The notes beneath the pieces were generated by a model. That model ran no database searches and was not told where the DNA came from. It saw nothing but the letters and a program-made list of their open reading frames with translations. Shown here piece after piece: positions 2-9,609 of a DNA stretch of 64,000 nucleotides. Position numbers and translations under genes: made by a program. Positions within the stretch are counted from its first letter, which is position 1. Each line of letters begins with the position of its first letter. The stretch comes from Massilia rubra (lineage in GTDB: Bacteria; Pseudomonadota; Gammaproteobacteria; Burkholderiales; Burkholderiaceae_D), in NCBI RefSeq assembly GCF_011682065.1, contig NZ_VUYU01000002.1, forward strand, positions 124,001-188,000. The letters are read 5' to 3'.

Positions 2-766
2 GTGGCCGCGCTGGCCGCCGGCACGGTGGTGTGCACCACCATCGCCGGCGCCGAATGCATGTTCGAAGCCACCCTGCACGCCGACAGCTACAGCCTGGCG
101 TCGCTGCAGGAACTGCACGGCAAGCGGGGCGCAGCCATGGAGGCGCCAGCGCCGCATGCGCGCCCCTTGCCCGGCCCCGCCGACTTGGCGGCGGCGTCCA
201 TCGTCCTGCCCGAACGGCGCGCCCATGCGCGTGAAAGGACGGCCGGCGGCACGCCGCTCAAGCTGTTCATCCGCCAGCCGTTCACCGAATCGGACGCCGA
301 GCAGCAGCGCCTGATCGGCGACATCATGGCGCTGATCGACAGCGCCAACGGCCTCCCGCATCCGTTCGACTACCTGACCGGCACCCGCGCCGAAAGCGCG
401 GACACCTTCAAGAAGTCGTTCGAGCGCGATTATCACCTGCCGTTCACGCCCAAGAACTTCCGCGACCACCGCCTGGGCCTGCTCGACCATGCCGATGCGG
501 TGGTCAACATCCGGGTCGGCATGAGCGAGAGCAGCGCTTTCGAACTCGGTTACCACATCTTCAAAGGACGCTGCACGCCTGTGCTGTTCCTGGTGTGGAA
601 GCACGCGCCGATCAAGACCACCCTGATCCGCGAGCTGCAGGACCTGTGCGACGTCACCTACCTCGAATTCGAGCATGTGGACGAACTGCGCAGGGGCATT
701 CACGCATTTTTCGGCACCATCCGGCGCGGCACGAGCAACGCCACAATGAATAGTCAGAAGGAGTAA
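2..766 (+). CDS. C-terminal part of a CarB-like carbamoyl-phosphate synthase fused to an NDT-like domain (5' partial)
   Basis: The reading frame is open from the first base, so the gene enters from outside the window. The first ~35 residues match the end of the MGS-like allosteric domain of the complete CarB fusion at 3921-7745. An Ala/Pro-rich linker follows, then an ~160-residue domain with the layout of nucleoside 2-deoxyribosyltransferases: an N-terminal [10 protein letters not shown] strand, a DHAD segment, and [10 protein letters not shown], which aligns with the D-G-(S/T)-A-F-E-(I/L)-G-(F/Y) box holding the nucleophilic Glu of that family. The stop codon overlaps the AAGGAG of the next gene, an MCP that starts 3 bases downstream, so the two are probably translationally coupled. 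The tail (TSNATMNSQKE) differs from the downstream copy. The NDT-like assignment comes from motifs only. Confidence 0.8.
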   Translation: MAALAAGTVVCTTIAGAECMFEATLHADSYSLASLQELHGKRGAAMEAPAPHARPLPGPADLAAASIVLPERRAHARERTAGGTPLKLFIRQPFTESDAEQQRLIGDIMALIDSANGLPHPFDYLTGTRAESADTFKKSFERDYHLPFTPKNFRDHRLGLLDHADAVVNIRVGMSESSAFELGYHIFKGRCTPVLFLVWKHAPIKTTLIRELQDLCDVTYLEFEHVDELRRGIHAFFGTIRRGTSNATMNSQKE

Positions 767-769
767 AAC

Positions 770-2512
770 ATGTTCGCCAACTTGAAAATCAGGACACTCG
801 TCATTGGTGTCCTATGCTTTCTCATCGCGCTGATGGTCACCATCGGCGCCATGGGCATCTACAGCGGCCGCCATGCGGTCGGCCTGGTGCGCGACGTTAC
901 CGTCGAAGACGAGCGCAACACCACCGTGCAAACGTCCATCCGTCTTGAAATGGAACTCAATCGCAGCCAGATCCTGCAGGCGCTCCAGCATAATCCGGTG
1001 CTCTCGTGGGCGCAGCTGCACGACCATCCGCTGACGGTCCACTTCGACCAGATCGACGCGATCGCCGGGCGCACCACCAAGCGCTGGGAAGAATACATCG
1101 CCGCCATCAAGACGCCCGAAGAGAAACGCCTGGCCGAGGAGTGGTACGCCAAGAGCGATGGACTGGGCATCGAGAACGTGCGCGCCGCCGCCGCCTTCAT
1201 CAAGGCCGAGAAGTGGGATGACGCCGAAACGGTCCTGATCAAGAAGATCAACCCGGGCTACCGCATTGGCGACGCCACCCTGGCCAACCTCAAGGAGCTG
1301 GCCGCCAAGCGCGTCAAGGCCGACGATGAGATGGTCAACGCCAGCCTGGCGCGCATCGCCTACGGCATGGTCGGCATCCTGCTGCTCGGCGTGGGACTGG
1401 GCGTAGCGGTCGGCTGGGCGCTGGTGCGCGCCATCTCGGCGCCGCTGCAGGAAGCCATGCGGATCGCCGTGCGCGTCGCCGACGGCGACCTGACCGGGCA
1501 AATCGCCGCGCACGGGAACAATGAAATCGGCGCCTTGCTCGGTGCGATGGACAAGATGAAATCGAACCTGGCGCAGATTGTCTCGGAAGTCCGCAACAGC
1601 ACCGACACCATTTCGAGCGCCTCGAGCGAAATCGCGGCGGGCAATACCGACCTGTCGGACCGCACCAGCTCGCAGGCCAGTTCGCTCGAGCAGACCGCCG
1701 CGTCGATGGAAGAACTCACTTCCACCGTGCGCCAGAACGCCGACAATGCGCGCCAGGCCAATGTGCTGGCCATGTCGGCGTCGGAAGTGGCCACCAAGGG
1801 CGGCCTGGTGGTGGCGCAGGTGGTCGAGACCATGGGTTCGATCAACGCCTCGTCCAAAAAGATCGTCGACATCATCGCCGTCATCGACGGCATCGCCTTC
1901 CAGACCAACATCCTCGCGCTCAACGCGGCGGTGGAAGCGGCGCGCGCCGGCGAACAGGGACGTGGCTTCGCGGTCGTGGCGTCCGAAGTGCGCAACCTGG
2001 CGCAGCGTTCGGCCAGCGCCGCCAAGGAAATCAAGCAGTTGATCGGCGACTCGGTCGATAAGGTCGACAGCGGCGCCAAGCTGGTCGACCAGGCCGGCCT
2101 GACGATGCAGGAAATCGTCACCAGCATCCATCGGGTCACCGACATCATGGGCGAAATCACCACCGCCAGCGCCGAGCAGACCGCCGGCATCGACCAGATC
2201 AACGAAGCGGTCGGGCAGATGGATTCCATCACCCAGCAAAACGTGGCCCTGGTCGAAGAAGCCGCGGCGGCGGCTGGCCTGCTGCAAGAGCAAGCCAGCA
2301 CGCTCACGCAAGTGGTCAGCGTGTTCAAGCTCGATGGCGCGGCCGCGTCGATGGCCGCGGTGCGCCACGCGCCGCAGCGCAAGCTTGCCGCCGTGACGGC
2401 GCGCCCGGCCGGCAAGCCGGCGCCCGCCGTGCGCAAGCTGGCAGCGCCCAAGCCCGCGCCGCACCAGCGCGCCGCCGCCACGGTCGCCGCATCGGACTGG
2501 GAAGAGTTCTGA
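770..2512 (+). CDS. Methyl-accepting chemotaxis protein (copy 1)
   Basis: 580-residue transmembrane chemoreceptor. TM1 covers about residues 8-30. A four-helix-bundle type periplasmic sensor lies at about 31-190, TM2 at about 193-215, then a HAMP domain, and a long cytoplasmic coiled coil with the conserved hairpin tip ([20 protein letters not shown]). An Ala/Pro/Lys-rich flexible tail ends in DWEEF, matching the x-W-x-x-F pentapeptide that tethers CheR/CheB in high-abundance receptors, so it is probably methylated efficiently. The start is fixed by AAGGAG at 758-763. It is a paralogue of the MCP at 7834-9609, with a near-identical signalling domain and a more diverged ligand domain. No che genes are in the window. 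The ligand cannot be inferred. Confidence 0.95.
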
Positions 2513-2534
2513 CGCGCGTGCGCGCGCAACGATC

Positions 2535-2566
2535 GGGCAGGGCGCGGGAGCGCGCCCGCCCGTTTT
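2535..2566 (+). terminator. Rho-independent terminator after MCP copy 1
   Basis: A GC-rich hairpin (GGGC-A-GGGCGCG paired with CGCGCCC-GCCC, 4-base loop) is followed by GTTTTG. It lies 22 bases after the MCP stop and separates the first module from carA. Confidence 0.75.
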
Positions 2567-2773
2567 GTAACAAACTGTCATTGATCCATATCATTGCCGT
2601 TTTCCCTTTCGCTGCTGGCGAACAGACGGCACATACCAAATGTTGGTTTAAGAAGACAAGCGACAAATCTTCGATGTAAGGCTTTATTTCTTTCAGGTAT
2701 CGTGTTTTTCGACAGGCAGCGTGGGCTCCCAACCGCCACGCGCCGTGCCGAATGCACCCTACTGGGAGACAGT

Positions 2774-3920
2774 ATGAAGCACCCGCTCAGCGGCTCGGGC
2801 ACTCGCCCCGGCGCCATTCTCGCACTTGCCGATGGCACGCTATTTCACGGCAGCGCCGTCGGCGCGCCAGGCCGGACCAGCGGCGAAATCATCTTCAACA
2901 CCGCCATGACCGGGTACCAGGAAATCCTGACCGACCCCAGTTACGCGCGCCAGATCGTCACCCTGACCTATCCGCATATCGGCAACACCGGCGTCAACCC
3001 ACACGACTGCGAATCGACGCGCGTGCATGCGGCGGGGCTGGTGATCCGCGACCTGGCGCTGCTGGCATCGAACTTCAGGAGCGGCGCCAGCCTGTCCGAC
3101 TACCTCGCCGCGCACGGCGTGATCGCAATTGCCGGCATCGACACCCGCAAACTGACACGCCTGCTGCGCGACGGCGGCGCCCAGAACGGCGCCATTGTCA
3201 GCGGCGACGACCCGCAGCCGGCGCTGGCACTGGCGCGCGCTTTCGGAGGCCTGGCCGGCGCCGACCTGGCGCGCCTGGTCAGCACCCAAACGGCGTACGA
3301 GTGGGACCAGACGGTGTGGCGGATGGAAACCGGTTTCGGACGCCGGCAAGGGGCGCACCTGCACGTTGCCGCCTTCGACTTCGGGATCAAGTCGAACATC
3401 CTGCGCATGCTCGCCGAGCGCGGATGCAGGATCACCGTTCTGCCCGCGACGACGCCCGCGGCCGAGGTGCTGGCGCTCGCCCCGGACGGGATCTTTTTGT
3501 CGAACGGCCCGGGCGACCCGGCCGCCTGCGACTACGCGATCGAGGCGGCGCGCATCCTGATGGAAAGCCGCATTCCGATGTTCGGCATCTGTCTCGGCCA
3601 CCAGATCATGGCGCTCGCGTGCGGCGCCACGACGGTCAAGATGAAGTTCGGCCATCGCGGCGCCAACCACCCGGTGCAGGACCTGGCCAGCGGCAAGGTG
3701 GCGATCACGTCGCAGAACCACGGTTTCGCGGTCGACGCCGCGACCTTGCCGGCCAATTGCCGGGTCACCCACGTGTCGCTGTTCGACGGCACCTTGCAGG
3801 GTTTCGAGCGCGTCGATACACCAGCGTTTTGCTTCCAGGGCCATCCCGAAGCCTCACCCGGCCCGCACGATACGGCTGGCCTGTTCGACCGGTTCGTGAC
3901 CATGATGGAGGATTGCAAAC

Positions 3921-3928
<8 letters not shown>
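2774..3928 (+). CDS. carA: Carbamoyl-phosphate synthase small (glutaminase) subunit
   Basis: 384 residues, the normal length for CarA. This subunit hydrolyses glutamine and passes ammonia to CarB. The N-terminal CPSase_sm_chain domain (about 1-150, with [16 protein letters not shown]) is followed by a class I glutamine amidotransferase domain. That domain has the nucleophile in GICLGHQ (Cys near residue 273) and the His/Glu pair in [11 protein letters not shown], so it looks catalytically intact. The frame is open further upstream to 2594, but the ATG at 2774 has a GGGAGA Shine-Dalgarno at 2764-2769 and gives the family N-terminus. It overlaps carB by 8 bases, implying coupled translation. 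The setting beside a fused carB and chemoreceptors suggests a paralogous operon rather than the housekeeping carAB, but the window cannot show whether another carAB exists. Confidence 0.95.
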
Positions 3929-7745
<3,817 letters not shown>

Positions 7746-7767
7746 GGCACGCACGCACGCAGGCACG

Positions 7768-7788
7768 CCGGCCGCATGGTGCGGCCGG
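7768..7788 (+). other. Hairpin in the carB-MCP gap
   Basis: CCGGCCGC pairs with GCGGCCGG across a 5-base loop. No T-run follows, so it is not an obvious terminator. It could tune relative expression of carB and the MCP or stabilise the upstream mRNA. Confidence 0.4.
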
Positions 7789-7833
7789 TGCTTCAACGCT
7801 TCCCTTAAGAACAGTAATCCAAGGAGTATTCGA

Positions 7834-9609
7834 ATGTTCGACAACATCAGCATCAAAAGCCTCGTCACCGGGGTTCTCGGCTTCCTGATCGCGCTGCTGG
7901 TGGCGGTTGGCGCCATGGGAATTTTTGGCGCAAGCCATTCGGTCTCCCTGATTCGCGACGTCACGCTTGAAGACTATAAAAACAGCTCGGTGCAGGCGGC
8001 CAGCCGGCTGGAGATGGAACTCAATCGCAGCCAGATCCTGCAGGCGCTCCAGCACAATCCGGTGCTGCCCTCGTCGCAGTTGCACGACCATGCGCTGACC
8101 GTGCATTTCGACCAGATCGAGGCCATCGCCGAACGCGCCACCAAGCGCTGGAAGGAGTACATGGCCGCCATCAAATCGCCTGAAGAAAAGCGCCTGGCCG
8201 AGGAGTGGTTTGCCAAAAGCGAGGGGCTGGGCCTGGAACATATCCGCAGCACGGCGGCCCTGATCAAGGCCGGAAAATGGGACGACGCCGAACATGTGCT
8301 GATCAAGAAAATCAACCCGACCTACCGTGTGGGCGACGCGGCGATGGAGCGCATGAAGGAAGCCATCGCCACGCGCGTGAACAGCGACGAATTGCGCGTC
8401 AAGGAAGAACTCAAGGAAATCGGCTACGCCATGATGGTGGTGTTGTTTGTTGGCGTGGTGCTCGGGCTCGCGGTAGGCTGGGCGCTGCTGCGCGCCATCT
8501 CCGCGCCGCTCGAAGAAGCCATGCAGATCGCGGTGCGCGTGGCCGATGGCGACCTGACCGGAAAAATCGGCAAGCACGGACGCAATGAAATCGGCGCCTT
8601 GCTTGGCGCGCTGGACAAGATGAAAGCCAACCTGGCCAGCATCGTCTCGGAAGTTCGCAGCAGCACCGACACCATTTCGAGCGCCTCGAACGAAATCGCG
8701 GCGGGCAATACCGACCTGTCGGACCGCACCAGCTCGCAGGCCAGTTCGCTCGAGCAGACCGCCGCGTCGATGGAAGAACTCACTTCCACCGTGCGCCAGA
8801 ACGCCGACAATGCGCGCCAGGCCAATGTACTGGCGCTGTCGGCGTCGGAAGTGGCCACCAAGGGCGGCGTGGTGGTGGCGCAGGTGGTCGAGACCATGGG
8901 TTCGATCAACGCCTCGTCCAAAAAGATCGTCGACATTATCGCCGTCATCGACGGCATCGCCTTCCAGACCAACATCCTCGCGCTCAACGCGGCGGTGGAA
9001 GCGGCGCGCGCCGGCGAACAGGGACGTGGCTTTGCGGTAGTGGCGTCCGAAGTGCGCAACCTGGCGCAGCGTTCGGCCGGCGCCGCCAAGGAAATCAAGC
9101 AGTTGATCGGCGACTCGGTCGATAAAGTCGACAGCGGCGCCAAGCTGGTCGACCAGGCTGGCGTGACGATGCAGGAAATCGTCACCAGCATCGCCCGCGT
9201 GACCGACATCATGGGCGAAATCACCACCGCCAGCGCCGAGCAGACCGCCGGCATCGACCAGATCAACGAAGCGGTCGGGCAGATGGATTCGATCACCCAG
9301 CAAAACGTGGGCCTGGTCGAGGAAGCGGCGGCGGCGGCCGGCCTGCTGCGCGAGCAGGCCGGCGCGCTGACGCAGGTGGTCAGCGTGTTCAAGGTCGATG
9401 GTGCGCCGGCGCGCACGCCGCAGGAGGTGCGCAAGGCGCCTGCGCGCAAACCCGCGTCGGCGGCCCCGCGCCTGGCGGGCAAAGCGCAAGCGGCGGCGCC
9501 CAGGGCCGCCGCACAGAATGCGGGCGCACCCAAGGCGGCCGCACCCAAGGCGTCCGCCGCGAGGCGCCCCGCCAGCACCGCCGTCGAAGCCGATTGGGAA
9601 GAGTTTTAA
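7834..9609 (+). CDS. Methyl-accepting chemotaxis protein (copy 2)
   Basis: 591 residues with the same architecture as the MCP at 770-2512: TM1 near residues 8-30, a four-helix-bundle sensor, TM2 near 195-217, HAMP, the methylation and signalling coiled coil, and an Ala/Pro/Lys-rich tail ending in DWEEF (CheR/CheB-binding pentapeptide). The start at ATG 7834 is chosen because AAGGAG lies at 7821-7826; the open frame upstream is unrelated coding. Of its DNA, 138 bases (8691-8828) are identical to 1627-1764 of copy 1, whereas the periplasmic domains differ more. That fits duplication followed by divergence of ligand sensing, or gene conversion of the signalling part. Confidence 0.95.

What the first reader, a model, noticed from the sequence alone, without database searches (positions are those of the whole stretch)
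2..9609. Tandem modules of a CarB-NDT fusion and a chemoreceptor
A CarB with a complete catalytic body carries a ~160-residue C-terminal domain with the nucleoside-deoxyribosyltransferase-like box [10 protein letters not shown], and an MCP follows. The same fusion plus MCP occurs immediately upstream (2-2512). Carbamoyl-phosphate synthesis, a putative N-glycosidic or nucleotide-binding domain, and chemotaxis receptors are not a known partnership. If real, it could couple nucleotide or carbamoyl-phosphate metabolism to chemotaxis, or be a new stress or defence module.
Basis: partly seen in the sequence, partly recalled or inferred. Interest (0 to 1): 0.85.

Follow-up and report, generated by a model that had tools for sequence, protein, structure and literature searches.

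The report
Rewired carbamoyl-phosphate synthase with receptor
Some environmental bacteria carry a second copy of a core nitrogen-metabolism enzyme that appears to have lost its usual nucleotide control pocket and gained a new nucleotide-enzyme-like domain, encoded next to a chemotaxis receptor, which suggests a so far unreported way of controlling this enzyme and perhaps of tying it to movement.

Summary
The window has one complete and one cut-off copy of carA–carB+C-terminal domain–MCP; the cut copy is complete in the assembly, and an ordinary carAB lies elsewhere. The ~160-residue domain is nearly invisible to sequence libraries, but its predicted fold matches nucleotide N-glycosidases (MilB, BcmB, DNPH1) and NDTs. 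The positions of the Glu nucleophile and 5'-phosphate Ser are invariant in 17 of 17 rows; the general-acid position is an invariant Arg. The fusion was found in 7 of 145 family genomes (four genera), not beyond the family in the samples searched. In all 7 an MCP lies next to it, downstream or upstream. New here: both ATP-grasp sites are intact, but the UMP/IMP pocket of the MGS domain is broken (K993 to Asp/Glu, N1015 to Leu/Ile/Val in 11 of 11). In one genome carA and the carB catalytic body have become identical to the ordinary copy, while this C-terminus stays different. Best reading: a second carbamoyl-phosphate synthase freed from UMP/IMP control, with a MilB/DNPH1-like domain as new nucleotide-binding module and a co-inherited chemoreceptor. 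Direct enzyme–receptor coupling is unproven; four fusion-negative genomes keep a receptor of this group alone. A defence role is not supported.

The parts
2..766 (+). C-terminal 254 aa of CarB fusion copy 1 (gene starts outside the window, C41:120912); MilB/DNPH1-like domain from 257
770..2512 (+). MCP of copy 1, 580 aa: TarH-type 4-helix ligand-binding domain, HAMP, MCP signalling domain, C-terminal DWEEF; 3 nt after carB
2774..3928 (+). carA of copy 2, 384 aa (start chosen by homology; ORF open from TTG 2594); glutaminase motifs GICLGHQ and QGHPEA present; overlaps carB by 8 nt
3921..7745 (+). carB fusion copy 2, 1274 aa; both ATP-grasp halves keep the active-site residues compared
6717..7136 (+). 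MGS-like (allosteric) domain of the fusion, approximate limits; UMP/IMP effector residues and effector loop lost, fold still predicted
7257..7742 (+). C-terminal MilB/DNPH1/NDT-like domain (residues 1113-1274): E1208 = nucleophile position, S1202 = 5'-phosphate Ser position, R1184 at the general-acid position, F1116 at the MilB-F17/DNPH1-Y24 position
7834..9609 (+). MCP of copy 2, 591 aa (TarH, HAMP, MCPsignal, C-terminal DWEEF); 88 nt after carB

Best explanation
A paralogous carbamoyl-phosphate synthase (carA + carB) that has dropped nucleotide feedback control through its MGS domain and carries instead a C-terminal MilB/DNPH1-like domain. Shown by sequence: catalytic residues compared are intact; the UMP/IMP pocket is lost; the new domain keeps the nucleophile Glu and phosphate Ser positions but has Arg at the general-acid position; an MCP of one subgroup is encoded next to it and inherited with it. 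Inferred: the enzyme keeps making carbamoyl phosphate when the ordinary enzyme is shut down by UMP, probably still activated by ornithine (arginine branch); the added domain binds a ribonucleoside 5'-phosphate (or cleaves one with a good leaving group) and adjusts the enzyme or the local nucleotide pool; the MCP is expressed with it so that cells seek a nutrient of the same pathway. Likelihoods: anatomy ~0.95; loss of UMP/IMP control ~0.75; domain acting as a nucleotide-binding regulatory or slow glycosidase module ~0.55; MCP functionally linked (same regulon) ~0.55.
For: 11 of 11 complete fusions compared keep the ATP-grasp and ornithine-site residues H781/E783/D791/E892 (positions recalled except as cited). 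K993 is Asp/Glu and N1015 is Leu/Ile/Val in 11 of 11, K954 is Gln in 10 of 11, the loop residues 997-1000 are deleted in 10 of 11; 18 of 18 ordinary CarBs compared keep K993 and N1015. A review ties T977 and K993 to UMP inhibition/binding and S948F to UMP/IMP insensitivity (PMC6245113, passages). Fold: MilB, BcmB, DNPH1 and NDT lead the PDB list, best E 1.2e-6, model pLDDT 80.8. Residues F4, R72, S90, E96 invariant in 17 of 17 rows. G100: about 4 kb of carA-carB identical between fusion and ordinary copy but for one base, ending at codon 958, then about 63% identity. MCP next to the fusion in 7 of 7 positive genomes of the family sample and at 7 of 7 further genus loci examined; C-terminus and MCP trees share 6 of 8 splits.
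Against: T977, another UMP residue, is kept in 11 of 11 and S948 in 2 of 11. No enzyme activity, ligand or expression was tested. Sequence support for the NDT assignment alone is weak: 1 of 17 members hits PF05014 at E 0.077, no better than two unrelated families; hhalign probability 43% over 37 columns. Four of 138 fusion-negative genomes carry a receptor of this group without the fusion, G144 at the same site. Tree agreement may reflect species descent only.
Confidence: 0.5

Rival explanations
1. The domain is an active N-glycosidase working on a metabolite of the pathway (CMP/UMP-type ribonucleotide, or NAD+/NMN as TIR enzymes do); fusion to CarB channels or recycles pyrimidine ribotide, and the MCP senses the released base or related nutrient.
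For: Nucleophile Glu and phosphate Ser positions invariant, Phe at the position where MilB has F17 and DNPH1 Y24 (ribose versus deoxyribose; PMC10603095 passages). TIR-like NADases rely on a conserved Glu (PMC13174449 passages).
Against: The general-acid Asp position (D80 of DNPH1) is an invariant Arg in 17 of 17 (mapped by spacing, 24 residues before the Glu, and by the edge of the hhalign alignment).
Confidence: 0.25
2. The fusion is a real second carbamoyl-phosphate synthase, but the MCP is only a neighbour: the pair travels together by descent and has no functional tie.
For: MCPs are common: 37 matches over the Pfam cut-off in this genome. Receptors of the same group occur without the fusion in G144, G120, G040 and G009. 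L026 shows no MCP downstream (its upstream side is cut off).
Against: Adjacency in two opposite gene orders (downstream in G000, G138, G111, G045, G067; upstream in G100, G108, M. horti), 3-nt spacing in copy 1, and presence of the receptor group in 7 of 7 fusion-positive versus 4 of 138 fusion-negative genomes (Fisher p 1.4e-9; genomes are not independent and the group was defined after seeing the tree).
Confidence: 0.3
3. Defence module: the domain is a TIR-like NAD+ or nucleotide-depleting effector.
For: TIR and NDT domains are related folds (PMC13174449 and PMC11204291 passages); one viral TIR-annotated protein is among the structure matches.
Against: No PADLOC hit to domain, MCPs or carA, and only an E 0.02 match inside the CarB body; housekeeping neighbours; intact metabolic enzyme attached in 11 of 11 complete copies; vertical inheritance at one locus in several genera.
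Confidence: 0.04
4. A redundant, decaying duplicate: pocket loss and C-terminal extension are drift.
For: The MGS part is loosely constrained (dN/dS 0.32-0.57 in 8 pairs); MGS scores just below its Pfam cut-off; G144 and perhaps G003 have lost carAB at the site.
Against: Catalytic residues intact in 11 of 11, core dN/dS 0.09-0.26 and domain 0.05-0.44, the same charge reversal at 993 in all 11, and recombination in G100 that repaired the core yet left the C-terminus different.
Confidence: 0.06

Closest known systems
Bacterial glutamine-dependent carbamoyl-phosphate synthase CarAB (E. coli type)
   Same: Both subunits, both ATP-grasp halves, glutaminase motifs and ornithine-site residues present; TIGR01369 and NF003671 matched well over cut-off.
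   Different: MGS nucleotide-effector pocket lost; extra linker and C-terminal domain; second copy beside an ordinary one.
MilB/BcmB CMP N-glycosidases and DNPH1 (RCL)
   Same: Fold (best PDB matches), spacing of phosphate Ser (6 before) to nucleophile Glu, Phe as in MilB F17.
   Different: General-acid Asp position is Arg; fused to CarB; 11-20% identity in the structural matches listed.
Nucleoside 2-deoxyribosyltransferases (PF05014)
   Same: Overall fold and the x-ELGY-type Glu motif aligned by hhalign.
   Different: No significant Pfam match; Ser instead of the Asp of the NDT D-x-G-T-x-x-E box.
Tar-like (TarH/4HB) chemoreceptors
   Same: TarH, HAMP and MCPsignal domains over cut-off.
   Different: Ligand-binding domain has a motif [13 protein letters not shown]...HDH...H in most rows and no solved relative by sequence; ligand unknown.
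UMP-insensitive, arginine-type CPS paralogues such as that of Bacillus subtilis (recalled, not tested)
   Same: Idea of a second CPS escaping pyrimidine feedback.
   Different: No extra nucleotide-glycosidase-like domain or MCP is known to me there (recalled).

Membership tests
Carbamoyl-phosphate synthase large subunit (CarB) | Two ATP-grasp halves with intact catalytic residues and full-length family match | tested here: met
   (11 of 11 complete fusions; catalytic positions recalled, compared with E. coli CarB)
Carbamoyl-phosphate synthase large subunit (CarB) | Enzyme activity | not testable with these tools
   needs bench work
UMP/IMP-regulated CPS | MGS effector pocket (S948, K954, T974, T977, K993, N1015) | tested here: not met
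   K993 and N1015 lost in 11 of 11, K954 in 10 of 11, S948 in 9 of 11; T977 kept in 11 of 11
Ornithine-activated CPS | Ornithine-site residues incl. T1042 | tested here: met
   H781, E783, D791, E892 in 11 of 11; T1042 in 9 of 11, Ser in 2
MilB/DNPH1/NDT N-glycosidase superfamily | Fold | tested here: met
   (predicted model only)
MilB/DNPH1/NDT N-glycosidase superfamily | Sequence match to PF05014 | tested here: not met
   no hit for the window copy; 1 of 17 members at E 0.077
MilB/DNPH1/NDT N-glycosidase superfamily | Nucleophile Glu and phosphate Ser | tested here: met
   E96 and S90 in 17 of 17
MilB/DNPH1/NDT N-glycosidase superfamily | General-acid Asp | tested here: not met
   Arg72 in 17 of 17 at the mapped position
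MilB/DNPH1/NDT N-glycosidase superfamily | N-glycosidic bond cleavage | not testable with these tools
   needs assay
Tar-type MCP | TarH + HAMP + MCPsignal | tested here: met
   both window MCPs over cut-off
Anti-phage defence (TIR-like) | Match to a known defence family or defence-island context | tested here: not met

The most novel reading that the evidence does not exclude
An allosteric-domain exchange in a central metabolic enzyme: the ancestral nucleotide-effector pocket of CPS was discarded and a nucleotide N-glycosidase fold was recruited as its replacement sensor, and this sensor-enzyme forms a metabolic-chemotaxis unit with a dedicated receptor (same operon, possibly physical contact), so that the carbamoyl-phosphate/pyrimidine-arginine state of the cell tunes taxis.
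Probability: 0.15. Interest if true: 0.85.

Novelty: new variant of a known kind. Interest (0 to 1): 0.62.

Why it matters
CPS stands at the fork between arginine and pyrimidine synthesis, and its UMP/IMP/ornithine control is a textbook case of allostery. A natural paralogue that keeps the catalytic machinery, loses the nucleotide pocket and adds a glycosidase-type nucleotide domain makes it possible to ask directly how a new effector site is built into an old enzyme. The G100 genome shows the experiment already done by nature: identical catalytic bodies, different C-termini. If the receptor is functionally tied in, it would be a rare operon-level link between a biosynthetic enzyme and chemotaxis.

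Tried and rejected
Sequence-only searches for the domain gave little: Pfam, NCBIfam, PDB (single sequence: one match at E 1.5; profile: none), PHROGs (best E 0.015, no function), PADLOC. Searches of order and phylum samples with the 17-row profile found only the window's own genome (1 of 399, 1 of 398); for many genomes only part of the first-look candidates was scored, so divergent relatives may be missed. Viral contigs, plasmids and phages gave none. No Rfam element in the six loci given other than a tRNA. Considered and dropped: G100 as an evolutionary intermediate (its retained S948 and K954 lie inside the recombined tract); Massilia sp. H-1 as a pseudogene (its frames are broken across neighbouring genes too, so sequencing error is likelier); a urea/arginine mutualism link to Massilia (PMC11844795, passages): interesting background, no evidence for these genes. 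The second model (MGS + linker + domain, pTM 0.46) does not fix how the domains are arranged. Literature: searches; none of the titles and abstract starts listed describes such a fusion (one search returned 0 papers); I opened passages of five papers only (PMC10603095, PMC11204291, PMC6245113, PMC11844795, PMC13174449), and subscription papers are mostly not held.

Rows dropped: in the CarB comparison 11 complete fusions were used; left out were M. atriviolacea (L022/L013, broken frame), Massilia sp. H-1 (L024, many broken frames), L026 (partial), the first copies in L020 and L021 (cut by the locus) and the short genus loci L115-L121. From, 18 ordinary CarBs were used; L105 (G158, one stop inside) was left out. 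In one search two MCP frames were trimmed to their last 592 and 582 residues and X letters removed.
Full report
1. What is there. The window is contig C41:124001-188000 of a 7.57-Mb assembly. Two head-to-tail units carA - carB - MCP lie at its left edge, all on the + strand. Unit 2 is complete: carA 2774-3928, carB 3921-7745, MCP 7834-9609. Unit 1 ends in the window (carB 2-766, MCP 770-2512) and is complete upstream: carA L009:11762-12919, carB L010:912-4766 of 1284 aa. carB and MCP are 3 nt apart in unit 1 and 88 nt in unit 2. The genome also has an ordinary carA-carB pair on contig C85, CarB 1076 aa. All 7 fusion-positive genomes among the 19 searched have an ordinary full-length CarB too, and the 12 others have only that one.

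2. The C-terminal domain. Residues 1113-1274 have no match in Pfam or NCBIfam for the window copy, and only 1 of 17 rows touches PF05014, at E 0.077, level with two unrelated families. The AlphaFold2 model from 11 rows has mean pLDDT 80.8 and pTM 0.79, a five-stranded alpha/beta fold. Foldseek against the PDB puts MilB CMP N-glycosidase first (E 1.2e-6), then BcmB, DNPH1 and NDTs; the few other folds among the 50 rows listed, such as AzoR, have TM about 0.4. Viral matches are mostly NDT-like, the first being a domain of a 602-aa protein annotated adenylate kinase. hhalign against seven PF05014 members aligns the ELGY box (probability 43%, 37 columns). DNPH1 uses E104 as nucleophile, D80 as acid and S98 for the phosphate; MilB has F17 where DNPH1 has Y24, which lets it accept ribose (PMC10603095, passages). 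By spacing, the domain has E96 (E1208 in the protein), S90 (S1202), R72 (R1184) and F4 (F1116) at these positions, each in 17 of 17 rows, 16 distinct. So the nucleophile and phosphate contacts are kept, a ribonucleotide pocket is suggested, and the general acid is replaced by Arg. This mapping is an inference from spacing and a predicted fold.

3. The enzyme body. Against E. coli CarB, 11 of 11 complete fusions keep the catalytic positions compared in both halves and H781, E783, D791, E892 of the ornithine site (most position numbers recalled). T1042 is Thr in 9 and Ser in 2. The MGS effector pocket is broken: K993 is Asp (9) or Glu (2), N1015 is Leu, Ile or Val (11 of 11), K954 is Gln in 10 of 11, S948 is Arg in 9 of 11, and residues 997-1000 of the loop are deleted in 10 of 11. 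T977 is kept in 11 of 11. Eighteen of 18 ordinary CarBs compared keep K993, N1015, K954, T974 and T977. A review names T977 and K993 as crucial for UMP action and S948F as making the enzyme insensitive to UMP and IMP (PMC6245113, passages). MGS scores 23.3 bits in the window fusion, just under its cut-off of 24.1, but still folds in a model of the C-terminal half.

4. Natural domain swap. In G100 the fusion and ordinary copies, on one contig, are identical from 1119 nt before the carB start to codon 958 except for one base in codon 326, then fall to about 63%. The shared core sits with the ordinary type in the tree. So the catalytic module was homogenised while the altered C-terminus stayed. 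S948 and K954 of G100 lie within the tract, which explains why it keeps them. An assembly cause cannot be excluded here.

5. Selection. In 8 pairs dN/dS is 0.09-0.26 for the core, 0.32-0.57 for MGS, 0.40-1.14 for the linker and 0.05-0.44 for the domain: the domain is constrained, the linker much less.

6. Distribution. 7 of 145 family genomes in four genera, 11 of 17 in the genus, 7 loci in the named genome collection, six from Massilia and one MAG labelled Janthinobacterium. Order and phylum samples gave only the own genome (with partial scoring of candidates). The two tandem copies fall in separate groups, copy 1 with M. frigida and G138 and copy 2 with M. aquatica and M. mucilaginosa second copies, so the duplication predates these species. 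In G000 the units sit between folA and thyA; in 5 of 5 fusion-negative genomes of the genus tested, thyA and folA are next to each other (a sixth, G902, was not tested).

7. The receptor. All 8 fusion copies in the 7 positive family genomes have an MCP adjacent on the same strand: downstream in G000 (twice), G138, G111, G045, G067, upstream of carA in G100 and G108. Of the named loci, L020 and L021 (two copies each), L022, L023 and L024 have it downstream, L025 (M. horti) upstream; L026 shows none downstream and is cut off upstream. Seven of 7 further genus loci have it downstream. These sets overlap in organisms. The receptor ligand-binding domain matches at E 1e-10 or better in 22 of 145 genomes; in the tree the module receptors fall into two clades (support 1.00 and 0.98) that also hold four receptors without the fusion (G144, G120, G040, G009) and separate from the rest with support 0.73. 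Presence of this group is 7 of 7 versus 4 of 138 (post hoc, not independent). Trees of the fusion C-terminus and of the MCPs share 6 of 8 splits, Mantel r 0.86, 3 of 5000 permutations as high, which shows co-inheritance, not interaction. Against an obligate pair: G144 has the receptor at the same site with no carAB.

8. Interpretation. I read the unit as a second CPS freed from UMP/IMP control and given a new nucleotide-type module, co-inherited and probably co-transcribed with a chemoreceptor. Whether the module senses or cleaves a nucleotide is open; the Arg at the acid position makes me favour binding or slow, specialised cleavage. Defence is disfavoured. No such fusion appeared in the literature searches.

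Noticed in passing
L126 (G003) about 2170-3240: MCP-like fragments in several frames lie between thyA and folA, same site and orientation as the unit, without carAB: perhaps a decayed receptor left after loss of the fusion.
   Followed up: partly
window 770-1402, 7834-8466 and relatives: The receptor ligand-binding domains share a His-rich motif (LQALQHNP ... HDH ... H), also in several receptors without the fusion; a metal or heme ligand is conceivable.
   Followed up: no
L030 (G045), roughly 14.7-16.8 kb: A second, unrelated MCP (701-aa frame) sits between the ThrAld-like and ABC genes downstream of the unit.
   Followed up: no
L024 / Massilia sp. H-1 (CP087969.1): Broken frames across carA, carB, MCP, thyA, ThrAld and ABC genes suggest many sequencing errors in this record.
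   Followed up: partly
L045 (G564:C1:374803-375033): A 507-aa frame with a weak PF05014 match has an RDLRLIDQSD stretch resembling the [12 protein letters not shown] of the fused domain; possibly a related domain type.
   Followed up: no
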